From positions 181,523 through 245,522 of the IMG/VR virus record IMGVR_UViG_3300025770_001492: 64,000 nucleotides of DNA; one strand, given 5' to 3'. The notes beneath the pieces were generated by a model. It was not told the DNA's origin and did no database searches. It saw only the letters and a program-made list of their open reading frames with translations. The DNA comes from a virus. Each line of letters starts with the position of its first letter. Position 1 is the stretch's first letter. The position numbers were made by a program, and so were the translations under genes. Of the stretch, positions 963-54,305 are shown piece after piece.

Positions 963-1391
963 ATGAATTTTAAAGACTTTATTGTATCAGAAGAAGATAT
1001 GGCACCGATGGGAGACCCTATGGGCGGTGGAATGCCGATGGGAGACCCTATGGGCGGTGGAATGCCGATGGACCCTATGGGTGGAGCACCCCCAATGGAC
1101 CCTATGGGAGGGATGGGTGGAGGAGCACCCCCAATGGACCCTATGGGAGGGATGGGTGGAGGAGCACCAGGCGGCGTTCAACCACCAATACAATTTAAAC
1201 CTAATTCTGTTTGGGATGTTTTAGATAAAATATTAAATGGAGAGCCTGTTAACGATAAAGAAGATGAAGAAAAAGAAAAAGAAAAAGAAGTAGATCAATC
1301 TGGACAAGAAAATTTAGATATGTTAAGTTCCCCTCAACAGCAAGAACCGGGAATGGCCCCCACTGGTCAAGTTGAGAATCCTCAGCTTTAA
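963..1391 (+). CDS. Met/Gly/Pro-rich repeat protein with capsid-targeting-like N terminus
   Basis: I do not recognise a family. The 142-residue protein starts MNFKDFIVSEED, one of the clearest copies of the N-terminal tag shared by many proteins here. Residues 13-70 are tandem units of M-G-D-P-M-G-G-G and A-P-P-M-D-P-M-G-G-M-G-G-G, coded by near-exact DNA repeats at about 1005-1165. A short ordered patch follows (NSVWDVLDKILNGEPV, about 80-95), then a Lys/Glu run and a Gln/Pro tail. Composition suggests an unstructured virion or head-core protein. A CATAAATA element sits just upstream. The -1 and +1 frames over the repeats are long only because of the repeats. Confidence 0.75.
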   Translation: MNFKDFIVSEEDMAPMGDPMGGGMPMGDPMGGGMPMDPMGGAPPMDPMGGMGGGAPPMDPMGGMGGGAPGGVQPPIQFKPNSVWDVLDKILNGEPVNDKEDEEKEKEKEVDQSGQENLDMLSSPQQQEPGMAPTGQVENPQL

Positions 1392-1423
1392 ATAAACATA
1401 TTATTTTTTACTAGTGGTGATAT

Positions 1424-2548
1424 ATGGTGGACAAAACCCCCAATGCAGTTGGAAGAGTTTTGCTGTTTTCTGATTTGCATATCCATCCTCACAAGCGAAA
1501 AACAGAACGTCTTGAGGATTGTCTAAAAGTTTTGGAATGGGTTTTCGATACTGCCATCGAACGAGGAATTGAAAACATTCTCTTTGGCGGCGATCTTTTC
1601 CATGACAGGCAAAAAATAGATGTCTTAACTTATCAGCGAACATTCGAGATATTTGACAAAAAGATATCAGAATGGAGAAAGGGCAACGGCGAAGCCAAAA
1701 TTTGGCTTTTGTTGGGCAATCATGATTTGTGGCACCTTAAAAAACATGATGTGTCTAGCGTGTACCCCCTTGCTGCTATAGATGGCGTTGAAATTATTTC
1801 AGAACCCTGTACTCGAACTATTTGCTCGAACTCTGAGGGAGAAGAATTTCAGGTTAGCTTTCTTCCGTACACGCACAATCCGCCTGAAGATCTTGGAAAA
1901 ATAGAAAATAAGTCTGAGAACAAAGTTTTAGTCGGGCATATAGCAATTGATAATGCTGTCTGGAACAGACTCCACGGAACTCGTTCAGAAGTTTCAATTG
2001 AACACGATGGAGACATGATCAAAGTTGACACTAAAATATTTGACGGATGGAATCAGGTATTTCTAGGACACTACCACGCAGAGCAACAGTTGGATTTCAA
2101 TACTGAGTACATAGGAAGCCCTTTGCAGTTGAGTTTTGGAGAGGCTTTTCAACACAAACACATAGTCCAATTCGATTTAAAAAACAACGACAAAGAATAT
2201 ATCAGAAACACATTCAGTCCTCAGCATTTTATAATTCCAGAAGCCGATTTGGAAAAATATGTTTTAGATAATAATTTTATCAGAGTTCTTGTGGAAGATA
2301 TATCTGATTCTAAAACTATAGAGATGAGGCAAAAGCTGACTGAAGACAACGATGTCGGCAGTTTGGAAATTCAGCAATCATCAAAGAAAAAAGAAGAACA
2401 CATAGTCGAGGATGCTAAGGCTATTTTGTTCAAAGAAGAAGAAATGTTAGATCAATACGTTGATGAAGTAGAGAAGGGTTCTGGTTTGGACACACTGGAA
2501 AAAGAACATCTGCTAGAAATTGGTAAGAATATATTACAGTCAGAGTAA
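1424..2548 (+). CDS. 47: Mre11/SbcD-type nuclease (T4 gp47-like)
   Basis: The 374-residue protein has all the calcineurin-type phosphoesterase motifs in order: FSDLHIHPH near 16, FGGDLFHDRQ near 54, LLGNHDLWH near 93, VGHIAID near 168 and FLGHYHAEQ near 213. It is the nuclease half of the Mre11-Rad50 complex, which in T4 (gp47-gp46) resects DNA ends for recombination-dependent replication and host DNA degradation. Its partner gp46 lies one gene downstream, separated by a glycosyltransferase-like gene, an unusual interruption of a normally adjacent pair. The C-terminal third, rich in Lys and Glu, fits the Rad50-binding tail. Confidence 0.92.
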   Translation: MVDKTPNAVGRVLLFSDLHIHPHKRKTERLEDCLKVLEWVFDTAIERGIENILFGGDLFHDRQKIDVLTYQRTFEIFDKKISEWRKGNGEAKIWLLLGNHDLWHLKKHDVSSVYPLAAIDGVEIISEPCTRTICSNSEGEEFQVSFLPYTHNPPEDLGKIENKSENKVLVGHIAIDNAVWNRLHGTRSEVSIEHDGDMIKVDTKIFDGWNQVFLGHYHAEQQLDFNTEYIGSPLQLSFGEAFQHKHIVQFDLKNNDKEYIRNTFSPQHFIIPEADLEKYVLDNNFIRVLVEDISDSKTIEMRQKLTEDNDVGSLEIQQSSKKKEEHIVEDAKAILFKEEEMLDQYVDEVEKGSGLDTLEKEHLLEIGKNILQSE

Positions 2549-2557
2549 GATTTTAAA

Positions 2558-3430
2558 ATGAAAGACGCAATAATTTCTTGGGCTAGTGGTTACGATTTCT
2601 GCCGCTTACCGGAATTCAATATATTTCTAAACTCTATTAGAAGATCTGGCTTCAAGGGCGACGTTGTTCTGTTTAGTCACGATCTCGATGATGAAATCCA
2701 TGACAAATTTTTGTCAATGGACTACAAGATAGTGATGACGGAGAAAGATAGAGTTCATTTGGTTGTAAGAGACAGGTTTTTACTGCTTTATGAATGGCTA
2801 ATAAAGAACGGGGACAATTATGACAACATCATAATGACAGACTCAAAAGACGTACTCTTCCAAAAAAATCCTTCTGACTACTTTTACATGAGGCAACTTT
2901 GTGCAGAAGGTGACAGGCCATTCACGAATCTGGGTGAAGAACAATCAATGAGCCACCAAGAACTTGAGAAATACGTTCTTTTGTGTTGCGAGGGAAGTGT
3001 CCACTACAAAAGCGAATGGAATTCTCAGAATCAAATTCGACTGCAAATGAATGTAGATGAATTCAAAATGCCTTTTATTAAAAGGCCAATAATTAATTCT
3101 GGATTCATCGCAGGAAGTCCAGAAGAATTGAAAAATCTATGTTTATTAATGTGGTCAAATTCTATCAGAACTGTTACAAAATTAAGTGAACAGGCAACTC
3201 TTAATTATCTTTATTTCTTTTTAGAGAAAGACCCCATTTACAAGCTTTATTATCCTCAAGACGATCCGTTTTGCTTGACAGGAGAAGGCGTTAAGCAAGG
3301 GTGGGTTGAATGTACAAAAATGAAAAAAGACGGATTAGTTTACAATTCTGAAACGGATATGCCTTACTTTGCTTTCCACCAATGGGAAAGAACCCAATAT
3401 AGAGATGAAATAATGGAGATGTATTCATGA
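2558..3430 (+). CDS. Putative GT-A glycosyltransferase
   Basis: The 290-residue protein opens with a typical GT-A start (DAIISWASGYDF, then GDVVLFSHDLDD near 38) and has a DxD-like motif in NIIMTDSKDVLFQKNP near 88-103. NSGFIAGSP near 185 and FAFHQWERT near 275 match the acceptor and closing parts of nucleotide-sugar transferases. I infer a glycosyltransferase but cannot name donor or acceptor. It sits between gp47 and gp46 and overlaps gp46 by 4 bp (ATGA), so it is translated in the same operon. It looks like an accessory gene inserted into a recombination module. Confidence 0.65.
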   Translation: MKDAIISWASGYDFCRLPEFNIFLNSIRRSGFKGDVVLFSHDLDDEIHDKFLSMDYKIVMTEKDRVHLVVRDRFLLLYEWLIKNGDNYDNIIMTDSKDVLFQKNPSDYFYMRQLCAEGDRPFTNLGEEQSMSHQELEKYVLLCCEGSVHYKSEWNSQNQIRLQMNVDEFKMPFIKRPIINSGFIAGSPEELKNLCLLMWSNSIRTVTKLSEQATLNYLYFFLEKDPIYKLYYPQDDPFCLTGEGVKQGWVECTKMKKDGLVYNSETDMPYFAFHQWERTQYRDEIMEMYS

Positions 3431-5569: not shown

Positions 5570-8500
5570 ATGTCAATTCGTGCATTGCAAGATTATACGT
5601 ATTATTCAAAATACGCACGTTACAACAAAAAAGAAATAAGAAGAGAAACATGGAATGAAGCGAGCGGTAGAGTCGAAGACATGCACATTAGGAAGTACCC
5701 AGAAGTTGAAGAAGACATTAGGTGGGCGTTTAAGATTTCTAAAGATAAAAGAGTATTAGGATCACAAAGAGCATTGCAGTTCGGAGGCACTCCCATAGAA
5801 AAGAAAAATGCAAGAATGTATAATTGCACTGTTTCTTTTTGTGATCGGATGAGATTTTTTCAAGAGTGCTTTTGGCTTTTGCTTTGTGGATGTGGAACAG
5901 GATTTTCTGTTCAAAAACACCACATTGGAAAACTACCCGACTTTGTGGAAAATTTAAATGGTGAACGTGGACTCAGTTCCCGTAAAGAAAGAATATTCAC
6001 AGTCCCAGATACAATTGAAGGCTGGGCAGATTCACTAGGAATTTTGCTGGCCACTTATATGCCTCATCCTGACTACCTCGACTGGAAAGGATGCAATGTT
6101 AAATTTGACTTTTCTCAAATCAGACCCAAAGGAGCACATTTGGCATCAGGAGTTGGAAAAGCTCCTGGTCCAGAACCTCTGATACAAGCTTTGAAAACGA
6201 TTAGGGAAATGCTTGATGAGCGTGTAAAGCAAGGCCACACACGTCTGAGGACAATCGATGCATATGATGTAATTATGCACGCTAGTGATGCGGTTTTGTC
6301 TGGTGGCGTTCGTAGATCTGCAACCATTTGCATTTTCGCACCAGACGATGAAGACATGATTAATGCAAAAACGGGGAATTGGTTTGTCGATAACCCTCAA
6401 CGAGCACGATCTAACAACTCTGCACTGTTGCTAAGAAACGAAACTTCAAAAGATGAATTTGAAAAAATTATGACTGCTGTGAAGCAGTTTGGAGAGCCAG
6501 GTTTTTACTTTAGCGACAGCACGGAACAGCTTCCAAATCCGTGCTTTCATAAAGATACACGTATTGCCACCAAAGATGGACTCGTTGGGATTGAGAGCCT
6601 TTATAAATCTGGCCAGCTTAACGAAGTGGTTGCAGATAATCGGGCTGGTGCCGGTGATGAATTAAACTTAGAAAACACTGGTGTTTCATTACTTCCTGCG
6701 TCAAGAGTCAAGCTGACTCAAAAGAATGCAGATATTTATGAGGTTCGCACCAAGCATGGGCACTCTGTCAAAGTGACATTAAATCATGAATTTCCAACAA
6801 CAAGAGGCAGGCTTCAACTAAAAGATATGGTTGAAGGAGATGAAATTCTCCTTCAATCAGAAGAAGGTTCGTGGGGAGATCGTGGATCTTATTCTCAAGG
6901 GCTTATTCTTGGAATGATCACTGGTGATGGTACTTTTTCCACGAAAGAAAAAAACAACAAACCTTTCAACGAAGCATTTATTGATGTTTGGGAAGATGAC
7001 TTTGGTCAATTAGGGCTTATTCAAAGCGTTGTAAATGACGAGATTATGGAATTGCCCAGCCTAAGCAATGGCGGTAGAAAATACGGCTGCTTAGAGTGGG
7101 TTAATCAAACAACAAACGAAACAACAGACAAAAATAGAATTGGCGGAAGCCGACTTTATAGATTTCTTGTTGAAGTTCTTGGAATTGAAAACCCACGATC
7201 TATAAAAAACAAACTGCCAGAATGTGTTTGGCAAGGCTCTAGAGAGTTTGTTCAAGGATACTTGCAAGGGTTGTTTTTTGCAGATGGCAGTACACAAATG
7301 TCAGGCCATGGAACAAAGGCCACTCTTTCTTATAGGCTGAACCAAAGCAATGAAAAATTGCTTCAGGAAGTGCAGAATATTCTTTCTAATTTTGGAATAG
7401 TTTCAAACATCTGCCTTAGACGTGAGGAAGGACATCGACTTCTTCCCGATGGAAGCGGTGGAAAGAAAGATTATTTTTGCAAAGCAAATTATGACTTGAT
7501 CATGAACCGACCAAATGCAATTGTTTTTGATGAAAAAGTTGATTGGATTGGTCGCAAAAAAGTAATCTGTGAAAGTTTTTGGGAAATCCGAGGTAAGGAT
7601 TGCAGAAAGCCAGAGAGATTTAAAACAAAAATAGAATCAATCGAGTATGATTCTACCGATGATGTTTTTTGTTTGAAACAACCAAAAACCAATACTGTTA
7701 TTGCAAATGGCTGTGTAGTTGGACAGTGCGTTGAAATCGGAATGTGGCCTGTAGATGAAAAAACAGGAGAAAGCGGGTGGCAGTTCTGCAATCTTTGCGA
7801 AATCAATGGTAAAAAAATAAAGTCAAAAGAAGACTTTGAAATAGCAGCGAAAGCAGCGGCTATAATCGGAACGTTGCAGGCAGGATATGCTAGTTTTGAT
7901 TATCTCGGAAAAACTACAGAAAACATTGTCAAAAGAGAAGCTTTGCTTGGGGTCTCTATAACTGGAATGCAAGACAATCCTGACATTATCTTTGATCCTA
8001 AGACTCAAAGAGAAATGGCAAAGTTGGTTGTTAAAGTCAATAAAGAAATGGCTGCTAAAATTGGAATCAATCCAGCCGCAAGATGCACATGTGTAAAACC
8101 AGCAGGAACAACTAGCTGTATGCTTGGGAGTGCAAGCGGAGTCCATCCGCATCATGCCAGAAGATACTTCAGACGAGTTCAAGCAAATTCTTTAGAGCCT
8201 GTTTATCAATATTTCAAGGAAAACAATCCTTGTGCTGTAGAAAAGAGTGCATACAAAAGCACTGATGGTGTGATAACTTTTTGCATAGAGGTTCCAGACG
8301 GTGCAAAAACTAAAAATGACATGCCTGCGTTGAGCTTGTTGGAGTGCGTTAAGTCAACCTATAACAATTGGGTAGAAAGCGGAAAGCAAAAAGAACTTTG
8401 CACTCAAGATTGGTTGACACACAATGTTTCCAATACGATAAATGTTCGCCCTGAAGAGTGGGATGAAGTTTCTGGTTACATATACAAAAACAGAAACTAT

Positions 8501-11164: not shown

Positions 11165-11734
11165 ATGAAATTTAGAGAATTTTTACTAAACGAAGACAGC
11201 AAATATTTAAGTGAAAAAATAGGCGGTATTTTGAGCATATTGCACGCTACCCAAGAAGATAAAGACGGACTTGGGAGCAGAGACATTGAAACTTATGCAC
11301 AAAAAGTTATCAATCAAATAAAGCCAATTTTAAACATTTCAAAAGGATCGAAGGATGTGCAACGATCCCTTCAGAAAGTCGCAGTAGCAATATCAATTGC
11401 AATGGAAGAAAAAAAAGGAGACGAACTCTTGGACATTATGTCAAAATCTTCCCAAATTATAGAAAAATTGTTATCTGATATGGGAAGCCCGATTCAAGAT
11501 TTGGGAACCCCTCCTGAGGCCGGAAAGCCACAAGACCAAGATTCGGCACTTCAGCCTCCGATTGAACCAGAAACGCCAGAGCAGCCTCCTGTCGATCCCT
11601 CACAGCCTCAGCAACCTGCTCCTGTCGATCCCTCACAGCCTCAGCAACCTGCTCCTGTCGATCCCTCACAGCCTCAGCAACCTGCTCCTGTCGATCCAAG
11701 ACAAGCACAGCGGCTTTCTTTGCCACAAGGATAG
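11165..11734 (+). CDS. Capsid-targeting-like N terminus, helical domain and PQQPAPVDPSQ repeats
   Basis: Unrecognised 189-residue protein. It starts MKFREFLLNEDSKYLSEK, a strong copy of the shared N-terminal tag. Residues 20-100 look like a compact helical domain, and the C-terminal third has a tandem 11-residue unit V-D-P-S-Q-P-Q-Q-P-A-P repeated about three times, coded by 33-bp DNA repeats near 11594-11694. The layout (tag, small domain, Pro/Gln tail) parallels the protein at 963. I infer a virion-internal protein. Confidence 0.72.
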   Translation: MKFREFLLNEDSKYLSEKIGGILSILHATQEDKDGLGSRDIETYAQKVINQIKPILNISKGSKDVQRSLQKVAVAISIAMEEKKGDELLDIMSKSSQIIEKLLSDMGSPIQDLGTPPEAGKPQDQDSALQPPIEPETPEQPPVDPSQPQQPAPVDPSQPQQPAPVDPSQPQQPAPVDPRQAQRLSLPQG

Positions 11735-22201: not shown

Positions 22202-22214
22202 GTGTTTATATAGT

Positions 22215-22247
22215 AAAAAAAGCCTGTGTTTGAAAAAACACAGGCTT
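22215..22247. terminator. Bidirectional terminator
   Basis: AAAAGCCTGTGTTT and AAACACAGGCTTTT form a 14-bp stem with a short loop, flanked by A and T runs on both sides. It separates the sulfotransferase/tube pair from the second tube gene. Confidence 0.88.
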
Positions 22248-22283
22248 TTCTTATGGCCGGAAGTAAAACATGTTGTAGGAGTT

Positions 22284-22877: not shown

Positions 22878-22924
22878 AATGTTAATTCTCCTAAATATTT
22901 AGATGATTTTTATTTCAACAAATA

Positions 22925-22949: not shown

Positions 22950-22963
22950 GATCTATCTATTTT

Positions 22964-25321
22964 TTAGAACGTGTCAGCATTCTCTGCGAAGCTGCCAGTT
23001 CTGTGAACGCTGAATTCTATAAACATAAATTCAACGGCTCTTGTTGGTTGAACACCGATTCTCGCTCGGAACTCATTTCGATCTATTACATCTGGTGTGT
23101 TAAGCTCTTCATCGGCTTGGATGATGAAGTCGGTTAAACCACGACCAATTTGAACTTCTCTAAGAATTTCAGTTGAAATGTCAACAAATCTTTGTCTAAA
23201 GACTTCGTCATGTGGATCGAAAAGTAAACCTCTCGAAGCTTGTCTAATTCTCTTTTCAAGAACAAAGAGAAGCCTTCTGACATTAACACGATCCAGTGCT
23301 GTAGGTCTTCTTTGAAGAGTCTTTTGACCCCATACAAGGAAACCATCAAAATCGCTAAAGTTCACGATAGGATTAACAGCGTTTCTATTTCCGTACATTA
23401 AGTCTCTTTCTTCAAGAGTTGGACGGGAATAAACATCTGAAATTCCAGGAACGATACCACGATTTGCACCAGCGGGAGCAAACCAAGGTTCTGCTAATTG
23501 ATCACTTCTTGCATAAACTGCCATCACTGACCCAGATGGTGGAACCCAAACATCTACTCTATTGAAGTTGTCTCTTACCTTGACCCAAGGCCAGTAAAGA
23601 GCACCAAAGTCACTATCAAATCTAGTAGTGTTTAGAGGGTGAGCACCGTTCTGCCATTGAACTATTTCATCAACAGTTAGACCGAATGGTGGGTCTATCA
23701 ACGCCAGACAATCCTGTCTAAAGTTTTCACAAACGTCCAGCATAGCAAGAACGATTGATGTAGATGGATGACCTGGAACAGCAATCAAATCAATGTCGAT
23801 TTGCTCTGGCTCAGATAAGGCATAAAGCCCACTGTATGACAGAGAGTTTCCAATGATTAGAGCATCTTGATCGTCTGGATCTGATGGAATTCCATCACTA
23901 CCGCCTGCAAGGCTGTATGTTCCATCCAGTGGCGGTGCAAGAGTGGCTGTGTTGTCTTGAACACGAACCCAATCTGATACCAATGTCAGGAATGTTTCTA
24001 CGTAGAACCTACTAGAGGAATCTTTAACAAGGTTGCCCCAAGATTCTACTTGATTGGAATCATTGTAGACATCCATAGTGAAAACGCCTTCTCTAGTATC
24101 GTTTTTAATAACGACTTGAGTTGCGTTTCCATCAACACCAGCACTATCTGCTGTAAGGGTGAAACTGTTAGTACTGGCAACAGAGTTTCCAGTTACAATT
24201 CCGTATGTTTCAACAGCAGCATCTCCGCTTACACCAGATGGGCTTGCACCCTCTGCTGTGACACCATCAAAATCAAACAATGAAGCAGCGGTGCTTTCTG
24301 TTTTGATTAAGAGTCGTGCGTCTCGTCCGTGATGCAGAGTTTGAAGCGTTAGGTTGTCACCAGTTGCAACAGCTTCAAATCCGCCAGGAATATCTCCATT
24401 AGTAATTTGAAGATTGATTTCCGTTAGAACTTCAAGAGTTGTTTTTTCTGCACCTTCTAGAACGGCCAAGTCAACAACTTGAACCACATTGTCGATAAGA
24501 ACATTGTCTGTTCCGTCAACAACAATTAAAAGCTGAAGATTAGAAAGACCAGTGAAGTCCCATTCTCCTGGTCCTTGATATCCATCTACTGGATATCTGT
24601 CTTCGCCAGAAGTAGAAGCAGCAATAGTCATTCCTGTTCCTAGTCCTGTTACAGAACTAGAACCACCATAGATAGCATCTTGAACAGATACCAGTTCTAA
24701 AGAAGCGTCTGGTCCATATGCGAATGTGCTTTCGACTGCAATTCTATTTGATCCGTCGCATGTGAACTGAATTCCGTCAACTGTTGAATCGAGTTGATCA
24801 TTTAAAGCTTCTGCCAGATCTTCACATGTGTATGGGCCTGGTGTTGTTCTGTTGGCGTCTGCCAACACAACCAAAGTTTTAGATGCTAAAACTCCATTCA
24901 GTTTCCAGCGGAAAAATGAATCGTCGCCAAACGAATATGTTTCTGCTGTGTCTGATTGAATTATGATTTGACCACCTGCAACAGGTACGTCAAATTCAGC
25001 AGTAGTGGCACGTTCGTCACTGACTGCGTCTTGGTCGCCAACTCTAACTACGTATAGTTCGTTAGCAACTAATAAATATTGCTCGGCAGCGTAAATCAAG
25101 TAGGGATCACCACTCTCAGGATGTGGATATCCAAATACTGTGTGTAGTTCTCTACTTGTTCTCACAACAGTAGGAATATTAATTGGGCCTTTACTTGCAA
25201 ACCCAACTAATCCTGCTCTGTGAAAAGACTGCTCAGGAGCAATAAAAGATAAATCTTTTTCAGCAATTCGAACGCTTGGTGAAATTGTGTTCGAAGGCGG
25301 AAATCCCCTTAATATCGCCAT
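22964..25321 (-). CDS. 18: Contractile tail sheath protein, T4 gp18-like
   Basis: The 785-residue protein has the classic sheath start (PSVRIAEKDLSF near 15, GLVGFASKGPINIPT near 37, LYVVRVGDQDA near 88) and the conserved C terminus (NRVDVWVPPSGSVMAVYARS, GFLVWGQKTLQ, RVNVRRLLFVLEKRIRQAS, EFMFIEFSV). The sheath surrounds the tube and contracts on infection. It is longer than T4 gp18 (659) because of an enlarged, beta-rich middle region. GGGAG lies upstream of the ATG. This is the most confidently assigned structural gene in the window. Confidence 0.95.
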   Translation of the reverse strand: MAILRGFPPSNTISPSVRIAEKDLSFIAPEQSFHRAGLVGFASKGPINIPTVVRTSRELHTVFGYPHPESGDPYLIYAAEQYLLVANELYVVRVGDQDAVSDERATTAEFDVPVAGGQIIIQSDTAETYSFGDDSFFRWKLNGVLASKTLVVLADANRTTPGPYTCEDLAEALNDQLDSTVDGIQFTCDGSNRIAVESTFAYGPDASLELVSVQDAIYGGSSSVTGLGTGMTIAASTSGEDRYPVDGYQGPGEWDFTGLSNLQLLIVVDGTDNVLIDNVVQVVDLAVLEGAEKTTLEVLTEINLQITNGDIPGGFEAVATGDNLTLQTLHHGRDARLLIKTESTAASLFDFDGVTAEGASPSGVSGDAAVETYGIVTGNSVASTNSFTLTADSAGVDGNATQVVIKNDTREGVFTMDVYNDSNQVESWGNLVKDSSSRFYVETFLTLVSDWVRVQDNTATLAPPLDGTYSLAGGSDGIPSDPDDQDALIIGNSLSYSGLYALSEPEQIDIDLIAVPGHPSTSIVLAMLDVCENFRQDCLALIDPPFGLTVDEIVQWQNGAHPLNTTRFDSDFGALYWPWVKVRDNFNRVDVWVPPSGSVMAVYARSDQLAEPWFAPAGANRGIVPGISDVYSRPTLEERDLMYGNRNAVNPIVNFSDFDGFLVWGQKTLQRRPTALDRVNVRRLLFVLEKRIRQASRGLLFDPHDEVFRQRFVDISTEILREVQIGRGLTDFIIQADEELNTPDVIDRNEFRARIGVQPTRAVEFMFIEFSVHRTGSFAENADTF

Positions 25322-27423: not shown

Positions 27424-27541
27424 GAAACCAGTTTTTATATGGGGAAATAGAGGAAGTCTGGCCAATCCAAAATTTCCTAGAATAATTTTTTGGAAGATTA
27501 ACAAGCCAGAATTTTTTGTTGAATTTACATTTAAAAATTAA
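27389..27541 (+). CDS. Short overlapping protein
   Basis: 50 residues starting MRHFKIKKRKNRKPVFIWGN and containing LANPKFPRIIFWKINKPEFF. It starts inside the previous gene in another frame and ends at a TTAA shared with the convergent gene at 27538. The aromatic, strand-like sequence is more protein-like than random, and resembles in style the PRIFFVVF part of the upstream protein. Evidence is otherwise thin. Confidence 0.4.
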   Translation: MRHFKIKKRKNRKPVFIWGNRGSLANPKFPRIIFWKINKPEFFVEFTFKN

Positions 27542-28170
27542 GCAGCTTGTTTCATTGCTTGAGCATATGAAATAATTGTTTCTGCATCCGTGTCTTCGGG
27601 TAAATGTTTCTCTAAGTTCATGACATGCTTTTTAAGACTCTCAATATCTACTACTGAAAACAAACCAAATGCATCTTCCATGTCTTTTGGTCTGCCTGTT
27701 GTGAGTTTCATAATCGCAAGCACAGACGGATCTGCTACTTTAAATTTTACTCCTCCAATGCTTGCCGTTTGAGATGTGTCCATTAAATATTTATTCAAAC
27801 CTGCGTTGCCAACATTTGCGTCTAAAAAGTCAGCATCTAACTCTGGTGCCTGTATTCCTCCAAAATCGTTTCCCGTAAGTGGAGCGTGAATCATGTTGTT
27901 TCTTCCAAGGGCTTCTTTGACTTTTTCTATATTATCTGTTAAAAAATCAACGTCAGTTTTATTTGGTCGATCTATATGATGATGGCTGTATGCCATACCT
28001 CCAATCAATACCCCAGATAGTTGGTTGTCTACTATAAATTGCATTGCACTTTGTGTTTTCTTCAAAGCGTCTGGATTTTGAATTGCCATCTCTTTGTATA
28101 AACTTTTTGAATCAAACAAAAAAGAAGTTGACAAATCTACTTGAGATTCTATAAAATTTCTAAAACTCAT
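27538..28170 (-). CDS. Nucleotidyltransferase-fold protein with capsid-targeting-like start
   Basis: The 210-residue protein begins MSFRNFIESQVDLS, a copy of the shared N-terminal tag. The next domain has LIGGMAYSHHHIDRPNKTDV near 57 followed by D-F-L, the G-G-x-A...R-x-T-x-D-x-D-F pattern of the Pol-beta-like nucleotidyltransferase fold (as in AbiEii-type toxins and antibiotic nucleotidyltransferases), and VADPSVLAIMKLTTGRPKD near 148, a typical AbiEii-like partner segment. If packaged, it could be injected and modify host RNA or protein. That step is inference. Its start overlaps the neck gene by 4 bp. Confidence 0.68.
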   Translation of the reverse strand: MSFRNFIESQVDLSTSFLFDSKSLYKEMAIQNPDALKKTQSAMQFIVDNQLSGVLIGGMAYSHHHIDRPNKTDVDFLTDNIEKVKEALGRNNMIHAPLTGNDFGGIQAPELDADFLDANVGNAGLNKYLMDTSQTASIGGVKFKVADPSVLAIMKLTTGRPKDMEDAFGLFSVVDIESLKKHVMNLEKHLPEDTDAETIISYAQAMKQAA

Positions 28171-32064: not shown

Positions 32065-32375
32065 TCTGGGAATATTTTAGGCGAGTTATCTTTCTTTTCT
32101 GGAGATATGGGTGAAGTAATATTCACGTCTAGTCCCATTTTCTCGAATTGTTCTTTTTGTTGCTCTAAGGCTGTGCTGAATCCTTTTTCATAAACATCAA
32201 CAATTAACTGCCCAAACGCTTGATAGTCTTTTTCCGACATTATAGTGTCAGACACTCTGGTTATAATGTCTTCATTTCTAGAATATCTTTCCTGAAGCAT
32301 TTCGAACATATATTTTTTAATCCCCCAGCTTAGTGGGTTGCTTAAATTTCTTAACCAGTTTGCTCCAAGTGACAT
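32061..32375 (-). CDS. Hypothetical helical protein
   Basis: 104 residues, MSLGANWLRNLSNPLSWGIK at the start, then helical charged segments (EKDYQAFGQLIVDVYEKGFS) and a Pro/Ser/Lys tail. No recognised family. The ATG overlaps the stop of the preceding gene (TAATG), so it is translated after the two tagged proteins at 32375 and 32545. A virion or chaperone role fits its position. Confidence 0.55.
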   Translation of the reverse strand: MSLGANWLRNLSNPLSWGIKKYMFEMLQERYSRNEDIITRVSDTIMSEKDYQAFGQLIVDVYEKGFSTALEQQKEQFEKMGLDVNITSPISPEKKDNSPKIFPD

Positions 32376-32544
32376 TATTTTTTATTCCTCTTTTTCTTTT
32401 TCTTTTTCTTACCAAATACAAGCTTGCCGCTGCCGCCTAATCCAGAAGTGTCTCCTGGAGCACCCCAGTAATTAAAAGTATCTGTCTTTTTTCTTTTAGG
32501 ATTTGTACCTGCAACTATTTCGCCTTCTATCCACTTTCTAAAGT

Positions 32545-32548
<4 letters not shown>
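32375..32548 (-). CDS. Short tagged protein, GTG start
   Basis: 57 residues beginning MNFRKWIEGEIVAG, a strong copy of the shared N-terminal tag, followed by a Gly/Ser-rich middle and a run of lysines (FGKKKKKKKRNKK). The GTG start overlaps the TGA stop of the 995-residue gene (GTGA), and its stop overlaps the next start (TAATG), so the three are tightly coupled. It looks like a small DNA-neutralising head protein. A short gene with a GTG start like this is easy to overlook. Confidence 0.6.
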
Positions 32549-35583: not shown

Positions 35584-36477
35584 ATGAGTAATTGTAGTAA
35601 TAATACTTTAGTTATTGGTCGTCCAACCAAAAATGCTATGGCGTCAACCCAGTGTTCTTCTGCTTGTTCCGATTTAGGACATGTAGACCCTTTGAATAAG
35701 AACGAATTGGGTCCACGTAAAAATAGGGACAAAGTCAGAGAACAAATTAGGGATTACATCCTCCACATGATGGGTGCGCCTGCTATTAAGCTTGAGTGTG
35801 ACGAGCAAAATGTAGATTTTGCTATAGATCAAGCTTTAAAAATAGTAGAGGATTACGCTCCAAGAGAGTTTTTTAGTTATTATGTGTTTTTAACTACGCC
35901 CGGAAAAAGTGTTTATGAGATGCCGCCTGATGTAGGGTATGTCAGAAATGTATTTTACAAAGAGCAAGGAACATTCGGGTTTCAGGCATCTGATTTAGAC
36001 GGCGCAATACCTATTGAATACTTTTATCCTGGCGGTAGCTACGCATCTATCCAAGGCGGACTAATTGATCCCATCCAGCCAATTTGGGGACGAATGGGAG
36101 AGTGGGTTTTATACAAACAGTACGAACAGATGTACTCAAGAACAAGTTCGAATTTAGGAGGCTGGGAGTGGGTTGGAGGATATAGAAATATTAAACTTTA
36201 CCCAATTCCTTACAAATCCTCGCAAGTTATTGTTCATTACATGGAAAAGTGTAAAGACTGGCAAGAGGTTACTCAAGCAATGCAAGAAGGTGCTTTAACC
36301 TATCTTAAAGAAATAGTAGGCAGAATAAGGTCTAAATATCCAGCACCTCCTGGACCTGGTGGCGGTATGCAATTGGATGGACAGTCTCTCATTCAAGAGG
36401 CAAGAGAAGATCGCCAAAAATGGTTTGAAGATTTAATTTACAAATTTGGAGACATACTCCCAATTAATTTGGATTGA
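35584..36477 (+). CDS. 13: Neck/head-completion protein, T4 gp13-like
   Basis: The 297-residue protein has a polar start, then REQIRDYILHMMGAPAIKLE near 55, DEQNVDFAIDQALKIVEDYA near 78, PREFFSYYVFLTTPGKSVY near 100 and GYVRNVFYKEQGTFG near 125, ending FEDLIYKFGDILPINLD. The pattern L-G-x-P-x-x-x-x-E-x-x-D-x-x-x-x-x-A-I-x-x-A followed by a Y-x-M-P-x-x-V strand is that of T4 gp13-type neck proteins. It likely forms the ring sealing the filled head. Identity is not strong, so confidence is moderate. Confidence 0.55.
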   Translation: MSNCSNNTLVIGRPTKNAMASTQCSSACSDLGHVDPLNKNELGPRKNRDKVREQIRDYILHMMGAPAIKLECDEQNVDFAIDQALKIVEDYAPREFFSYYVFLTTPGKSVYEMPPDVGYVRNVFYKEQGTFGFQASDLDGAIPIEYFYPGGSYASIQGGLIDPIQPIWGRMGEWVLYKQYEQMYSRTSSNLGGWEWVGGYRNIKLYPIPYKSSQVIVHYMEKCKDWQEVTQAMQEGALTYLKEIVGRIRSKYPAPPGPGGGMQLDGQSLIQEAREDRQKWFEDLIYKFGDILPINLD

Positions 36478-36482
36478 TAAAT

Positions 36483-36992
36483 ATGGATTTTAAAAATTGG
36501 TTAAAACTGGAAAGTATTGACGAGAACACTTCCTTATCTGAGTGGTTTGAGAGCAACCTGTCGGAAGCAAAAGGAACCAGATATAGTGTAGAAGTCAACT
36601 ACAGGAGCAAAGCATCAGAAGCTTTGGACGCCTTTGCTAAGATTGCACTAGGTTATGTGAGTGCAGCTATGAAGAAAAACGATTACCACGTTAAGCATGT
36701 GTTTGATGAAAATCCAATGAGAATATTGGTGTCAAGTAGAAACTGGGACGATGGTGAATGGGTAGGTGTAGTTCACTTTAACCCAGATCACGGGTGTTTT
36801 GTTATATCTAAGAGCTTTTACAATAAATTAAGAAAGACAGTTTCCTTAAAAGGAAGTAAAAAATGCAGCGGAGACTCTGCGTCTGAAATAGCAAAAGATT
36901 TAAAGAATCTAATGCATTCTTTAAAAGATAAACCCGATAGACATAAAGAAAAGCTAAAGAGCGTTCCTTTGAAGCGTGGGCCTAAAAGATAA
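36483..36992 (+). CDS. Tagged protein of unknown function
   Basis: 169 residues beginning MDFKNWLKLESIDENTS. The start is ATG 36483, six bases after the previous stop. The body has RYSVEVNYRSKASEALDAF and WVGVVHFNPDHGCFVISKSF, and a basic C-terminal tail (KEKLKSVPLKRGPKR). No family recognised. The gene overlaps the Nudix gene by TAATG and forms a tagged pair with it. A head-internal nucleic-acid-binding protein is a reasonable guess. Confidence 0.6.
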   Translation: MDFKNWLKLESIDENTSLSEWFESNLSEAKGTRYSVEVNYRSKASEALDAFAKIALGYVSAAMKKNDYHVKHVFDENPMRILVSSRNWDDGEWVGVVHFNPDHGCFVISKSFYNKLRKTVSLKGSKKCSGDSASEIAKDLKNLMHSLKDKPDRHKEKLKSVPLKRGPKR

Positions 36993-37417
36993 TGCATATT
37001 TCGTTTATCAATTGGCTAGAGAACAGAAAATTGGATAACAGGGACACAGAGAAAACTGCTGGAATATTTTTTACTAATGGCAAAAAGGTTTTATTGCTTC
37101 AAAAACCAAACAAGAAGTGGCAATTGCCTGGGGGTCATGGAAAAAAAGGAGAAACCGCTCATGAAACCGCAAAAAGAGAATGTCTAGAAGAATGCGGAAG
37201 TGTAGAGGGTAAAAGTTTAGGATCAATAAAAAACGACAACTGGACTGCCTTCTTCTATAAAGTTGAAAAACTTTTTGACTGCAATTTAAGCGATGAGCAC
37301 ATAGACTGGGAATGGACTGACTTGGACAAGATCAAAGATATCAATTTGACAAAAAAGTTTAAAATCAATTTAGAAGAACATTTGAAATTTTTAAAATCCT
37401 TGAGAGAACGCTTTTGA
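36992..37417 (+). CDS. Nudix hydrolase with tag-like start
   Basis: The 141-residue protein has a complete Nudix box GGHGKKGETAHETAKRECLE followed by E-C-G near 46-68 (G-x5-E-x7-R-E-x-x-E-E-x-G), preceded by LLLQKPNKKWQLPGG. Nudix enzymes hydrolyse nucleoside diphosphates linked to other groups (capped RNA, dinucleotides, oxidised dNTPs). The first residues MHISFINWLENRK look like the shared tag, which a free Nudix enzyme would not need, so it may be packaged and delivered into the host. The convergent peptidase gene overlaps its end by 27 bp. Confidence 0.82.
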   Translation: MHISFINWLENRKLDNRDTEKTAGIFFTNGKKVLLLQKPNKKWQLPGGHGKKGETAHETAKRECLEECGSVEGKSLGSIKNDNWTAFFYKVEKLFDCNLSDEHIDWEWTDLDKIKDINLTKKFKINLEEHLKFLKSLRERF

Positions 37418-38008
37418 TGGAACCTGCTTTAGCTCAGGTATTCGAACAGCAATGTTATTCCAGTTTGTTTTGACCCAATTCATAAACTTGGCCTCAGCTT
37501 GTCTTGGTCCTGTTTCGTCTGTTCTTCCGAGAGTTTGTCTCTCTAATTCGTGTGTTGCTTCATGAACTATTGTGCTTGCTATTTCTAAAATAGCTTCAAG
37601 ACTATCTCCATGTTCCTGAACATGCCTTCTTATGTTGACCCGAATAGTGTCAGACGGATTGATTTGATTTAGATCTATGTCTGGAACATATTGCTTAATT
37701 ACCACATTGGGAATGCTATTTATTTTATTTGAATTCATCACATCGTCTCCAAATCTCATTCTTAATTTGTTTAGGACGGAAGATCCAATTTGTTTTTTAT
37801 CTTCAGAAGATGTATAAAGCCCATAAGCTCCAGAGTTCAGCGTTGCTATTGTGCTTATGTTTGCCAGCAAAGACTGATTAGTCATTGAATCGTACATCCT
37901 GACCAGTTTTACAGCATATTTAGCTTTGTCATAGGCTGCATCTATCTGAGATTCGTCAACATCTTCGGTGCCTATTGTGTTTAATTCGAGCCAATTTTTA
38001 AAATTCAT
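37391..38008 (-). CDS. Putative zincin metallopeptidase with tag-like start
   Basis: The 205-residue protein begins MNFKNWLELNTIGTEDVD, one of the clearest tags. ASTIVHEATHELERQTLGR near 148 contains H-E-x-x-H followed by E, the zinc site of metallopeptidases, and the nearby TDETGPRQAEAKFMNWVK could carry a third ligand. Before it is a domain of helix-rich sequence. I infer a packaged protease acting on a host or virion protein. A CATAAATA element lies 5 bases upstream of the ATG. Confidence 0.65.
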   Translation of the reverse strand: MNFKNWLELNTIGTEDVDESQIDAAYDKAKYAVKLVRMYDSMTNQSLLANISTIATLNSGAYGLYTSSEDKKQIGSSVLNKLRMRFGDDVMNSNKINSIPNVVIKQYVPDIDLNQINPSDTIRVNIRRHVQEHGDSLEAILEIASTIVHEATHELERQTLGRTDETGPRQAEAKFMNWVKTNWNNIAVRIPELKQVPSKAFSQGF

Positions 38009-38013: not shown

Positions 38014-38021
38014 TATTTATG
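38014..38021 (-). promoter_or_regulatory. T4-late-like promoter element CATAAATA
   Basis: On the minus strand CATAAATA is followed by ATTAT and the ATG at 38008, a 5-base gap. With T4 spacing the RNA would begin at the ATG itself. The element overlaps the stop of the gene at 38017. Confidence 0.4.
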
Positions 38022-39443: not shown

Positions 39444-39780
39444 GAACAGAAGGATTTTCTGCCAACTCAACCACTTCAACCCTAAAGTCTACATAATCTT
39501 TTACTTTATTCTGCCATTCGAAAAAACGGATGTTCCAGCCTCTTTCTTCAACAAATTCCACATCTTGTTCTGTTAAGAAACAACATCCGTTTGGCATCCA
39601 CTCTTTTGAAAGATTCCTTTTCATCCATTTTTGACACACTTCTTCAGTTTTGAACAAAGGAACAACAGTTCGTCCTTCGAACTCATACACTACCAGCGGC
39701 ACCCAAGCCTCTTTGCCACATTCATTTTGTATATCCAGATAAGACATATCTCCAGCGGTTGTTACTGCGGCTATAAACAT
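39433..39780 (-). CDS. Hypothetical protein
   Basis: 115 residues starting MFIAAVTTAGDMSYLDIQNE, chosen because GGAG lies 7 bases before ATG 39780. It has ECGKEAWVPLVVYEFEGRTV, a helix WMKRNLSKEW and repeated aromatic residues near the end. The sequence is compact and strand-rich. No family recognised. Its end overlaps the truncated HAD gene. Confidence 0.55.
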   Translation of the reverse strand: MFIAAVTTAGDMSYLDIQNECGKEAWVPLVVYEFEGRTVVPLFKTEEVCQKWMKRNLSKEWMPNGCCFLTEQDVEFVEERGWNIRFFEWQNKVKDYVDFRVEVVELAENPSVHAR

Positions 39781-39793
39781 AATCAAACTCCAT

Positions 39794-42038: not shown

Positions 42039-42281
42039 TTATTTTTTTGTTCTTCCCATTTGTGCTGCGTCGAGATCGTGAGTTGATTTTTTAGGAGCAA
42101 CCCAGAGATTCGGGTATTGTGCAGAGAAGTATGCAGGAGGATAATTTGCACTCCATCCTGTTCTTGCACGATTTTCGTCCGTGGTCTTTTCAGACGTTGG
42201 CTCTTCTACAACAAAGTTAGTTTCGAACGGTACAGGTAAAGAATTATCGTCTGCCCACTGTGTGAATGTCTTTAAACTCAT
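42039..42281 (-). CDS. Tagged small protein
   Basis: 80 residues beginning MSLKTFTQWADDNSLPVPFE, a variant of the shared tag (L-K-x-F-x-x-W). The rest is polar with proline, tyrosine and tryptophan (GWSANYPPAYFSAQYPNLW). GAGG lies 9 bases before the ATG. Function unknown; a head-associated role is suggested by the tag only. Confidence 0.5.
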   Translation of the reverse strand: MSLKTFTQWADDNSLPVPFETNFVVEEPTSEKTTDENRARTGWSANYPPAYFSAQYPNLWVAPKKSTHDLDAAQMGRTKK

Positions 42282-46159: not shown

Positions 46160-46177
46160 GATCAGTCTGGCGTTTAA

Positions 46178-46840
46178 ATGAAAAAGTCTAAAAACAAAAT
46201 CATGAAACCAACGAAAGTTTTGCCGCCTTTGATTTTTGGATTTTTGTTTTCATTGTTTATAATATCTCTAATTCTAAAAACGACCAATGATTACAGTTAT
46301 CCAGAGAGTTATCTTGTCAAAGACTTCCCTCTACTGGAGCAACCAGATCAAATAACATGCGGCCCAACCAGTTGCGCCATGCTGATAAATCATTATGGTC
46401 ACGAAGTCACAATACAAAGTGTAAGCAAAGAAACTAAAACAAAGTGGATTTCTTACAAGAACGAAAACATAGGAATGACATCGCCAGACTATATCCAAAT
46501 AGCCTTGAAAAAATTTGGCATTAGATCAAAAGTTAAAACAGGAAACTTAGACCAACTTGAACACTACGTGAGCCAAGATAGGTTGCCAATTGTTTTACTT
46601 AGGAGCGGAGAGAAAACGTGGCACTATGTAGTCGCCATGGGATACAATGATAAAGAAGTATTTCTCGCAGATCCTGGTTGGGGAGAAGTGAGAAAAATCA
46701 AAAATGAAGTTTTCCTAAGATCTTGGGAATTCGCAGGGGACATGCGAGGAAACACCCTCCCGACTGACGATGTAATTTCTTTTTTGGTGCTAATGGCAGA
46801 CGTTCAGAAGAAAACTATGATAGTACCGGATAAGCAATGA
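46178..46840 (+). CDS. Membrane-anchored C39-like cysteine peptidase
   Basis: The 220-residue protein has a basic start and one membrane span (PPLIFGFLFSLFIISLIL, 16-33), then the C39 motif EQPDQITCGPTSCAMLINHY near 54 with Cys nucleophile, WHYVVAMGYNDKEVFLADPG near 147 with His and Asp. C39-type peptidases cleave after double-glycine leaders or act as periplasmic proteases. The catalytic domain would face outside the cytoplasm. It lies between an oxygenase-like and a glycosyltransferase-like gene, suggesting joint handling of a surface or secreted polypeptide. Confidence 0.75.
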   Translation: MKKSKNKIMKPTKVLPPLIFGFLFSLFIISLILKTTNDYSYPESYLVKDFPLLEQPDQITCGPTSCAMLINHYGHEVTIQSVSKETKTKWISYKNENIGMTSPDYIQIALKKFGIRSKVKTGNLDQLEHYVSQDRLPIVLLRSGEKTWHYVVAMGYNDKEVFLADPGWGEVRKIKNEVFLRSWEFAGDMRGNTLPTDDVISFLVLMADVQKKTMIVPDKQ

Positions 46841-48699: not shown

Positions 48700-49551
48700 A
48701 TGCAAAACTATAAAGAGTGGAAGAAAATTAATGATTTGATGAATGAATCTTTTTCAACAAATCTAGGGGTTTCTTCACGTTCCACCGTTGGCGGTATCGT
48801 CAGCCAATTCCAGACATTTTCAGACCTCAGCGATGAGGATGTACTTGAGGAAATGAAAAAAAGAATGAAGAAGAAGAAGAAGAAGAAGGAAGATGAAGAA
48901 GATGAAGAAGATGCCGAAACTGGAGATGGAGAAATCGTAGATGGCGATGATGCTCCTCCAAAGGACAAACCTAAAGACGACGATAAAGACGACGATAAAG
49001 ACGACGATAAAGACCTTTCTTTCTATGAAAAAATGAAAAAAGCTAAATTGAAAAAAATGAAAGGCATGAAGAGAAAAATGTCAAAGAAGATGAAGGAGCA
49101 TGTTGAACTGGAAAACATGATCGAAGAAATGGAAGACATTTTATCCGAAGTCAAAAAAATGAAGAAGTCCATGGATGACGAAATGGACACAGAAGAAGAA
49201 GAAATCGAAATCGAAGTTGACGACGATGACGATGACGACAAGTGTATAAAAGATTCAAAAGATTCAAAAGATTCAGAAGAAGATTCAGAAGAAGATTCAG
49301 AAGAAGAAATGAAGATGATGAAAAAGAAATCCGGCAAAAAGATGAAAAAGGGTATGAAAGAATCTTCTGAGGAAGAATCTTGGTTGAATAGCGTCGAAAC
49401 AATGACTACCTTTACCAATACTAAAAATTGGGACGGCATGCCTATCGAAGAAGACATGCTCATCCAGACTCAACGAGACGAGTCAGGTGCTACTGAAGAG
49501 CCAGGCCCTGGAGAGGTAGGACACGCTCCACAGCAAAGATTTGGATTTTAA
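48700..49551 (+). CDS. Highly charged low-complexity tagged protein
   Basis: 283 residues from ATG 48700, preceded by GGAG. The start MQNYKEWKKINDLMNESF resembles the T4 tag MKTYQEF more than the others. The rest alternates lysine-rich, methionine/lysine and aspartate/glutamate runs with DNA-level repeats (KDDDKDDDKDDD, SKDSKDSEEDSEED). A short ordered tail has LNSVETMTTFTNTKNWDGMP. A scaffold-core or internal head protein is the best guess. Convergent with the epimerase gene by a 4-bp TTAA overlap. Confidence 0.6.
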   Translation: MQNYKEWKKINDLMNESFSTNLGVSSRSTVGGIVSQFQTFSDLSDEDVLEEMKKRMKKKKKKKEDEEDEEDAETGDGEIVDGDDAPPKDKPKDDDKDDDKDDDKDLSFYEKMKKAKLKKMKGMKRKMSKKMKEHVELENMIEEMEDILSEVKKMKKSMDDEMDTEEEEIEIEVDDDDDDDKCIKDSKDSKDSEEDSEEDSEEEMKMMKKKSGKKMKKGMKESSEEESWLNSVETMTTFTNTKNWDGMPIEEDMLIQTQRDESGATEEPGPGEVGHAPQQRFGF

Positions 49552-50688: not shown

Positions 50689-50829
50689 TCAAGTATATGT
50701 CCTAGAGGGTCTTACTACAGGCTTTAGTCGCTTTTTTAAGGCAATTCTTTTCTTCTTTGACTTGTCAAACTTGATATCATATTTTAGACTGTTATCTTCA
50801 AGCCATTTTTTAAAACTTGTTTTTTCCAT
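50689..50829 (-). CDS. Tagged basic microprotein
   Basis: 46 residues, MEKTSFKKWLEDNSLKYDIK then KSKKKRIALKKRLKPVVRPS. The start is a clear tag (S-F-K-K-W-L-E) and the rest strongly basic. It lies only 10 bases from the divergent PrimPol start. A CATAAATA element overlaps that start codon on the opposite strand. Likely a head-internal DNA-binding peptide. Confidence 0.5.
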   Translation of the reverse strand: MEKTSFKKWLEDNSLKYDIKFDKSKKKRIALKKRLKPVVRPSRTYT

Positions 50830-50834
50830 AGTAC

Positions 50835-50842
50835 TATTTATG
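50835..50842 (-). promoter_or_regulatory. T4-late-like promoter element CATAAATA
   Basis: On the minus strand CATAAATA is followed by GTACT and the ATG at 50829, again a 5-base gap. It overlaps the PrimPol start codon, so the two genes are packed as tightly as possible. Confidence 0.4.
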
Positions 50843-53151: not shown

Positions 53152-53161
53152 ATTTTTCCTA

Positions 53162-53926
53162 TCATTTAAAAAGCCTATACCAGTGTGGCATTTTCTCACA
53201 CGCAACATTCGAAGAAAAAGCACTTATTCCCATTTTATTATGCATGGTGTGAATGTCTATATCACTTGGATAATTATCTTCTATTTTTCTGTGAAATATC
53301 TTTTTGTCTCCATGCACTAGAATTCTGTAAAACCCTTTCTTGGCGGTTCTGAGTCTAAACTTATCAACGGATTGGTATGTTGGCCTTTCGTTTTCGCATA
53401 TGTCGTGAATCGTGGCCATGAAACTTTCGTCGGGCTTATGTGAAAATCCAACTCTAATAAGCAAAGCGTAAAGAGAAATCATTGGAGGGCTTTTTAGCCA
53501 CCTTTTGCTTCCTGTAAAAACCCAAGCCTTTTCATTTAGATACTTCTTTTCTGGATTTGATACGCATCGAGCGACTGTCTTTTTTATCCCTAGTCGGTCT
53601 TCGATTTGATTCAAGAACATCAAGCATTTGGGCACGTTGTCTTTAAAGTTTTTGTCTTTATCATGTGCTACTAGCAATTTGCATTTTTCTATGCAAATTT
53701 TAGGATGCACTTCTGGGTCGTAAACGAAACCATATTTCTTCTTTTTCTTGTTTAAAAGATGTGCCTGTATTGCGTCTTGTAAGTAATCTTTACAATACGC
53801 AAGGGGCATGCATTGCTCATTTTTTTGAGAAACAAATGCAAATTGAAGCCCTTTTTTAACGCCTTGCAACAATCTTTGCTTCTCGGAAAACCACTTTATT
53901 TTAACTTTATTTTTCATAATTTTCAT
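53162..53926 (-). CDS. Hypothetical protein upstream of amidoligase
   Basis: 254 residues from ATG 53926, with GAGGA 7 bases upstream. The protein is basic and helical, with PEVHPKICIEKCKLLVAHDK near 75, NEKAWVFTGSKRWLKSPPM near 130 and DKFRLRTAKKGFYRILVHGD near 195. No family recognised. It precedes the amidoligase on the same strand with a 10-bp gap and may be its substrate or partner. Confidence 0.55.
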   Translation of the reverse strand: MKIMKNKVKIKWFSEKQRLLQGVKKGLQFAFVSQKNEQCMPLAYCKDYLQDAIQAHLLNKKKKKYGFVYDPEVHPKICIEKCKLLVAHDKDKNFKDNVPKCLMFLNQIEDRLGIKKTVARCVSNPEKKYLNEKAWVFTGSKRWLKSPPMISLYALLIRVGFSHKPDESFMATIHDICENERPTYQSVDKFRLRTAKKGFYRILVHGDKKIFHRKIEDNYPSDIDIHTMHNKMGISAFSSNVACEKMPHWYRLFK

Positions 53927-54005
53927 TATTGGGTCCTCATGCATAATCTAAATTTAAATCATTATGATGAATAGAAAATATTATGAAAACCCTAAATAAA
54001 GTGTT

Positions 54006-54305
54006 ATGTTGAATTTTAGAGAATTTATTTTAAACGAAAACTACCAATTTCATGATGTAGAGATTGCAAATATGTACATGCATCAACCAAGCTTAAAGGT
54101 TAAAGAAATATCTGAAAAAACTGGGAAATCTGTAGCTGAAATATATAGAGTACTTCAGAGAAGCGGCATGCCTGCGAACAGAATGCCTATCAACCACGAA
54201 TCTGTCTTTTCTCTCTCTGACGCTGGGTTTAATGTAAGACATATTGCAGAACTAACTGGATATACACCTAGAAACATTAGGTACATATTGAAAAAAGGAA
54301 ACTAA
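54006..54305 (+). CDS. Tagged helix-turn-helix protein
   Basis: The 99-residue protein begins MLNFREFILNENYQFHD. If translation starts at the TTG 54009 the first residues are MNFREF, the shared tag exactly. Two helix-turn-helix units follow: VKEISEKTGKSVAEIYRVLQ near 35 and VRHIAELTGYTPRNIRYILK near 77. A DNA-binding protein with a capsid tag would be injected with the genome and could act before phage transcription begins. CCTAAATA lies 13 bases upstream of the ATG. Confidence 0.65.
   Translation: MLNFREFILNENYQFHDVEIANMYMHQPSLKVKEISEKTGKSVAEIYRVLQRSGMPANRMPINHESVFSLSDAGFNVRHIAELTGYTPRNIRYILKKGN

What the first reader, a model, noticed from the sequence alone, without database searches (positions are those of the whole stretch)
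963..54305. A shared N-terminal tag on about a dozen unrelated proteins, likely a capsid-targeting sequence
Seen: proteins at 963, 11165, 27538, 32375, 32545, 36483, 36992, 37391, 42039, 48700, 50689 and 54006 start with variants of M-x-F-[KR]-x-[FW]-[IL]-x-x-E (for example MNFKDFIVSEED, MKFREFLLNED, MNFRKWIEGE, MNFKNWLEL), then diverge completely: Nudix hydrolase, zincin peptidase, nucleotidyltransferase fold, HTH, Pro/Gln or Lys/Asp low-complexity. Known: T4 internal proteins carry a similar N-terminal capsid-targeting sequence (MKTYQEFIAEA) cut after E by the prohead protease. Inference: this phage packages an arsenal of enzymes that are injected with the DNA. This is the best candidate for an undescribed system here.
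Basis: partly seen in the sequence, partly recalled or inferred. Interest (0 to 1): 0.85.

Follow-up and report, generated by a model that had tools for sequence, protein, structure and literature searches.

The report
Head-packaging tags in a huge phage
About two dozen otherwise unrelated proteins of this huge bacterial virus start with the same short tag, which closely matches the address label that phage T4 uses to load proteins into its head for injection, so the virus very probably carries a large ready-made protein kit into its host.

Summary
The window is the last 64 kb of a 245.5-kb record (G000) of a T4-type contractile phage. All 12 listed starts exist. The core F-x-x-[FW]-[LIVM] occurs at 11 of 86 gene starts in the window (1-2 expected) and 27 of 352 in the record (5-6 expected). 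Nine related contigs and a 595-kb relative (LR756511) are enriched too; T4, a cyanophage and a Microcystis phage are not clearly so.

The tag fits T4's capsid-targeting sequence: two aromatics three apart (IPIII Y4, F7), then I/L, then Glu. Independent support: (1) relatives carry T4-type prohead protease and capsid genes together; (2) the capsid propeptide ends in invariant [IM]NE, and [LI]xE (the T4 cut rule) is enriched in tags (32% vs 10% in matched controls); (3) orthologues keep the tag while bodies diverge, and a Nudix has it only as a prefix; (4) a T4-late-promoter-like element precedes 39% of tagged versus 9% of untagged genes.

Cargo includes PAP2+ArdC anti-restriction, Nudix, zincins, nucleotidyltransferase and many small unknowns. 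Packaging, cutting and injection are inferred, not shown. The principle is known; scale, cargo and clade appear new.

The parts
963..1391 (+). Tagged protein MNFKDFIVSEED..., Met/Gly/Pro-rich low complexity, 142 aa
   Evidence: Tag score 16.7 and CATAAATA 7 nt before the ATG
948..955 (+). CATAAATA, T4-late-promoter-like element of the 963 gene
   Evidence: element enriched before tagged genes
11165..11734 (+). Tagged protein MKFREFLLNEDS..., helical then Pro/Gln repeats, 189 aa
   Evidence: Orthologues in G004, G007, G013 and LR756511 keep the tag, with [LI]xE at the same place (LLNE, ILTE, ILDE, LITE)
27538..28170 (-). Tagged protein MSFRNFIESQ..., nucleotidyltransferase-like (DUF6036/DUF2204), 210 aa
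   Evidence: Pfam E=5e-6; tag
32375..32548 (-). Tagged small basic protein MNFRKWIEGE... (GTG start), 57 aa
32545..35532 (-). Tagged large protein MIDISFSKFIEGVE..., 995 aa, no family match
36483..36992 (+). Tagged protein MDFKNWLKLES..., 169 aa, unknown fold, conserved in the clade
   Evidence: Seven orthologues with variable tag and conserved RYSVEVNYR core; [LI]xE just before the core in six of seven
36992..37417 (+). Tagged Nudix hydrolase MHISFINWLENR..., 141 aa
   Evidence: Pfam NUDIX E=2.7e-15; orthologues in G013 and LR756511 lack the tag
37391..38008 (-). Tagged zincin-like protein MNFKNWLELN... with HEATHE motif, 205 aa
   Evidence: Orthologues tagged in five relatives, degenerate in LR756511
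38014..38021 (-). CATAAATA, late-promoter-like element of the 37391-38008 gene
42039..42281 (-). Tagged small protein MSLKTFTQWADDN..., 80 aa, degenerate tag
   Evidence: Orthologues carry the canonical tag
48700..49551 (+). Weakly tagged protein MQNYKEWKKINDLMNE..., 283 aa (in-frame ORF begins at 48670)
   Evidence: Y-x-x-W spacing and LMNE; no family match
50689..50829 (-). Tagged small basic protein MEKTSFKKWLEDN..., 46 aa
50835..50842 (-). CATAAATA, late-promoter-like element of the 50689-50829 gene
54006..54305 (+). Tagged HTH-like protein MLNFREFILNEN..., 99 aa
   Evidence: Weak HTH matches; tagged orthologues in G002 and G008
22964..25321 (-). Tail sheath (context: T4-type contractile phage)
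   Evidence: PHROG 23, E=9e-78
35584..36477 (+). T4 gp13 (head-tail adaptor) homologue, untagged (context); its relatives in G013 and G012 have the late-type element
   Evidence: phmmer E=2.9e-6

Best explanation
The shared N-terminus is a T4-type capsid-targeting sequence. Late in infection, tagged proteins are made together with virion proteins from T4-like late promoters. The tag, a short segment F-[KR]-x-[FW]-[LI]-x-x-E, docks each protein onto the prohead core through its two aromatic residues. The T4-type prohead protease then cuts after a Glu, typically in [LI]-x-E, and frees the cargo inside the head. DNA is packaged around it, and the cargo enters the next host cell with the genome. 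There at least part of it (PAP2+ArdC anti-restriction, Nudix, zincins, nucleotidyltransferase) can act before any phage gene is expressed. Shown here: the tag's statistics, its conservation, cut-site enrichment, the late-type element, and the cognate protease and capsid genes in relatives. Inferred: docking, cutting, packaging, injection and cargo functions.
For: N-terminal enrichment in the window and record and in nine related records plus LR756511. Match to T4 IPIII positions 4/7 (targeting) and 8/10 (processing) and to the gp21 rule [LI]xE (PMC9026906). gp21-type protease (E about 1e-28) and gp23-type capsid (E about 1e-89) side by side in G005, G010 and G013, with GEL[DN]HP and SSRG motifs kept. 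Invariant capsid propeptide end RL[IM]NE in 32 loci. [LI]xE in 49/153 tags vs 23/241 internal copies of the same core, p=4e-8, followed mostly by A, S, N or G. Orthologues keep the tag at 26-66% identity; the Nudix has it only as a prefix. Late-type element before 34/87 tagged vs 100/1081 untagged genes, p=2e-12. Tagged PAP2+ArdC anti-restriction protein, in line with the anti-restriction role of T4 IP1-3 (PMC12373910).
Against: No virion proteomics exists for this phage. G000 itself has no match to the protease or capsid gene; I take it to be a fragment. Only about a third to a half of the tags contain a clear [LI]xE, and the zincin family lacks a strict site. The scaffold partner is unidentified. 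Most cargo has no known function, and a relative's ArdC is untagged.
Confidence: 0.87

Rival explanations
1. The tag is a docking peptide for something other than the prohead core, for example a replication compartment, the host membrane or another phage protein; tagged proteins act in the same infection and are not packaged.
For: Docking partner not identified; tagged genes are scattered over the genome and their functions are varied.
Against: Position-by-position match to the T4 CTS, cut-rule enrichment next to the tag, late-type element shared with virion genes, cognate protease in the clade. A docking peptide that is not removed would not need [LI]xE.
Confidence: 0.08
2. Tagged proteins are head-assembly or DNA-condensing structural components that stay in or leave the head; only a few or none are injected effectors.
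For: Many are small, basic or low-complexity (57-aa and 46-aa Lys-rich proteins). T4 core proteins are also targeted to the prohead and then cut (PMC5694885). Compatible with the targeting mechanism.
Against: Recognisable enzymes and an ArdC anti-restriction domain carry the tag; large turnover of cargo between relatives is unlike a structural core.
Confidence: 0.2
3. The shared start is a by-product of a repeated DNA cassette (promoter plus start of gene) or of chance and composition, not a functional peptide.
For: Many tagged genes share a CATAAATA/TATATA element close to the start codon.
Against: Tag codons differ between copies; 53 of 87 tagged genes lack the element; shuffled and internal controls give several-fold fewer matches; orthologues preserve the tag over large divergence.
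Confidence: 0.02

Closest known systems
Phage T4 internal proteins (IPI, IPII, IPIII) and Alt with capsid-targeting sequence, cut by gp21
   Same: N-terminal tag of about 10 residues; two aromatics three apart, I/L, Glu; unrelated bodies behind one tag; T4-type protease and capsid genes in the clade; late-type promoter element; anti-restriction cargo (PMC9026906, PMC12373910).
   Different: Two to three dozen tagged genes per record instead of a few; W common at the second aromatic and F instead of Y at the first; spacing to the Glu often one residue longer; cargo includes larger enzymes, up to 659-995 aa; uncultivated huge-phage clade.
Ejection proteins of phiKZ-like giant phages (SPN3US, phiKZ, 201phi2-1)
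   Same: Many head proteins carried in the virion, cut after Glu by a diverged gp21-like protease (PMC5694885, PMC9026906).
   Different: There the propeptides are mostly over 100 residues and the cut rule is [SA]xE; here the tag is about 10-20 residues, the rule looks like [LI]xE, and the capsid and protease are of the T4 type.
Phage P1 DarB capsid-targeting signal
   Same: An N-terminal signal sends an anti-restriction protein into the head (PMC9024508).

Membership tests
T4-type capsid-targeting sequence system | Short tag at the very N-terminus of otherwise unrelated proteins | tested here: met
   27 of 352 genes vs about 5-6 expected; bodies unrelated
T4-type capsid-targeting sequence system | Two aromatic targeting residues three apart (IPIII Y4, F7) | tested here: met
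   F at column 0 in 84 of 87 and W/F at column 3 in 84 of 87 tags; detection used these columns, so conservation in orthologues is the independent part
T4-type capsid-targeting sequence system | Processing site [LI]xE in the tag | tested here: met
   Enriched, 32% vs 10% in matched controls, p=4e-8, but not present in every tag
T4-type capsid-targeting sequence system | gp21-type prohead protease and gp23-type capsid protein in the phage | tested here: met
   Met in relatives G005, G010, G013 and LR756511; no match in the incomplete-looking record G000 itself
T4-type capsid-targeting sequence system | Late expression with virion genes | tested here: inconclusive
   Late-promoter-like element strongly enriched; transcription not measured
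T4-type capsid-targeting sequence system | Tagged proteins found in the head, trimmed after the Glu | not testable with these tools
   Needs virion proteomics
T4-type capsid-targeting sequence system | Cargo enters the host with the DNA | not testable with these tools
   Needs infection experiments
phiKZ/SPN3US-type long-propeptide ejection proteins | Propeptides mostly over 100 residues, cut at [SA]xE | tested here: not met
   Tag is about 10-20 residues; conserved capsid propeptide end is RL[IM]NE (reference values from PMC5694885 and PMC9026906)

The most novel reading that the evidence does not exclude
A clade of huge phages has turned the T4 capsid-targeting signal into a general loading port: dozens of modular cargo proteins per virion, gained and lost by adding or dropping an N-terminal tag (as with the Nudix), including a packaged PAP2+ArdC anti-restriction protein, so that counter-defence and host take-over are largely delivered as protein before any gene is expressed.
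Probability: 0.5. Interest if true: 0.8.

Novelty: new variant of a known kind. Interest (0 to 1): 0.63.

Why it matters
Most genes of huge phages have no known function. A head-packaging tag that can be read from sequence would put two to three dozen unknown proteins per genome into one testable class: carried in the virion and probably delivered at once. It would extend a mechanism worked out on T4's few internal proteins to a widespread uncultivated clade, point to candidate anti-restriction and host-takeover proteins, and give many natural signals for loading proteins into phage heads.

Tried and rejected
PF03420 and PF07068 searches in G000 gave nothing; phmmer with T4 gp17, gp20-gp24, gp67 and gp68 found no match in G000, whereas gp4, gp13, gp15, gp18 and gp19 did, so the head genes seem to lie outside the record. 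Matches at G000 51063 and 132938 were dropped as false positives; the G010 primase-like match is doubtful too. Search for second, internal tag copies: the hits in tagged proteins were over-extended starts; the one real-looking case is SFTEWMLKLED between PAP2 and ArdC. ArdC in LR756511 is untagged and differently built. A possible ADP-ribosyltransferase cargo (YHGTAFRNLR...) had only a weak PDB match to RNA 2'-phosphotransferases (E=0.075) and a poor model (mean pLDDT 47), so it is not claimed. The fold search for the 36483 family found nothing significant, and the zincin profile found no PDB relative. The first cleavage-site test used my scoring matrix and was partly circular; it was repeated with a regex that ignores Glu.
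Full report
What the window is. The window is positions 181,523-245,522 of a 245,522-base linear virus record, G000. It encodes a T4-type contractile tail (sheath, two tube paralogues, sheath stabiliser, hub), and homologues of T4 gp13 and gp4 are in the record. A tail-sheath search gave 54 related loci: five are identical pieces of the same phage, the rest are 60-80% identical. A 595-kb metagenomic phage, LR756511, has a capsid protein 79% identical to that of relative G005 and an orthologue of the window zincin.

The tag is real. All 12 reader coordinates hold; 42039 and 48700 are weak by themselves. Using only F-x-x-[FW]-[LIVM] close to the start, the window has 11 matches in 86 genes, against 1.7 in shuffled N-termini and 0.8 predicted from internal positions. 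The whole record has 27 of 352, against 5.9 and 4.6. Tagged genes outside the window include G000 39615-39950, 46033-46395, 80123-80551, 84789-85223, 96690-96884, 113938-114258, 124116-124508, 124802-125062, 136881-137279, 158397-159176, 167706-167960 and 171905-173884.

It is shared by the clade. A matrix trained on G000 finds tags in all nine related records (4-14% of genes at score 6 or more, against 0.3-1% of internal positions) and 36 at score 8.5 or more in LR756511. With the regex, LR756511 has 49 against 17.8 shuffled, while T4 (5 vs 3.2), P-SSM4 (7 vs 3.0) and Mel-JY01 (6 vs 4.3) are not clearly above chance. Orthologues of tagged proteins are tagged as well, even at 26-66% identity of the body. 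The exceptions are the Nudix, whose relatives in G013 and LR756511 begin directly at the enzyme domain, and a few degenerate N-termini in LR756511. The tag therefore behaves as a detachable prefix under selection at protein level; its codons vary.

It matches the T4 capsid-targeting sequence. In T4 IPIII (MKTYQEFIAE) residues 4 and 7 matter most for targeting, 8 and 10 for processing, and gp21 cuts after [LI]xE (PMC9026906). The tag here has F at the first and W or F at the second aromatic position with the same spacing, then L or I, then a Glu-rich stretch. T4 IPI, read from the T4 record, begins MKTFKEF.

The cognate machinery is in the clade. G005, G010 and G013 carry gp21-type protease and gp23-type capsid genes close together, and G005 has a T4-type portal upstream. 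The protease keeps the GEL[DN]HP and SSRG motifs. Protease, capsid gene and many tagged genes lie in the same record in G013 and LR756511. G000 has no match; since it is a linear record and relatives have the genes, I treat it as a fragment. That step is inference.

Cut sites. The capsid propeptide ends LLENQRL[IM]NE in 32 loci, in the region that aligns with T4 FLTE65. In tags, [LI]xE close behind the core occurs in 49 of 153, against 23 of 241 internal copies of the same core (p=4e-8). The next residue is most often A, S, N or G. In the 36483 family the tag varies in sequence and length, yet [LI]xE precedes the conserved RYSVEVNYR core in six of seven members. Not every tag has the site, so trimming is probable for many and open for others.

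Expression. TATATA or ATAAATA lies within 36 nt of the start in 34 of 87 tagged and 100 of 1081 untagged genes (p=2e-12), with a peak 10-14 nt upstream. It resembles the T4 late promoter TATAAATA (own knowledge). Untagged carriers include gp13-like and tail-tube-like genes. Of the 34 tagged genes with the element only 5 also have a Shine-Dalgarno-like sequence, which suggests very short leaders.

Cargo. PAP2 plus ArdC anti-restriction (G000 171905-173884), Nudix (36992) and nucleotidyltransferase DUF6036 (27538), zincin-like proteins with an HExxH-type motif (37391; G000 80123 with a weak Peptidase_M78 match), a DnaJ domain in G013, an HTH-like protein (54006), and many small, basic or low-complexity proteins without a match. 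T4 Ip1-3 inhibit GmrSD restriction enzymes (PMC12373910), so ArdC is a fitting cargo; but one clear anti-restriction protein is not an arsenal.

Conclusion. The best explanation is a T4-type capsid-targeting sequence used on an unusually large scale in a huge-phage clade. Statistics, conservation, site enrichment, promoter element and machinery are shown; docking, packaging, trimming and injection are inferred. The principle is known and the extent is new, so I file it as a new variant of a known kind. I found no paper that describes such a tag set in this clade, but the library holds only open-licence papers, so that is weak evidence of novelty.

Noticed in passing
T4 NC_000866 18966-19130 (L223:167-331): T4 gp61.1, annotated as hypothetical, begins MKTFKEFIKEDMVAGDSGG and scores as a capsid-targeting tag; it may be an unrecognised T4 internal protein.
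   Followed up: partly
G000 171905-173884 (L010:11905-13884): Tagged PAP2+ArdC protein has a second tag-like stretch, SFTEWMLKLED, between the two domains, as if two tagged proteins had fused; protease could separate them.
   Followed up: partly
window 5570-9037: Ribonucleotide reductase gene contains an intein with a LAGLIDADG endonuclease domain.
   Followed up: no
L092:2295-4832 (G005): The T4-type portal gene of a relative is split by an intein-like domain; G010 looks alike.
   Followed up: no
G000 117459-122479 (L007:17459 to L008:2479): Phage carries adjacent SpoVR, YeaH-like (by eye) and PrkA kinase genes, a bacterial stress-response trio.
   Followed up: no
window 56555-57499: Subtilase (Peptidase_S8) gene near tail-fibre-like genes.
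   Followed up: no
window 20905-25321: Two tail-tube paralogues with a sulfotransferase-like gene between them, and a 785-aa tail sheath much longer than its 496-position profile.
   Followed up: no
window 948-955, 38014-38021, 50835-50842 and relatives: Late-promoter-like elements end only 5-7 nt before the ATG and these genes mostly lack a Shine-Dalgarno-like sequence, so their transcripts may be nearly leaderless.
   Followed up: partly
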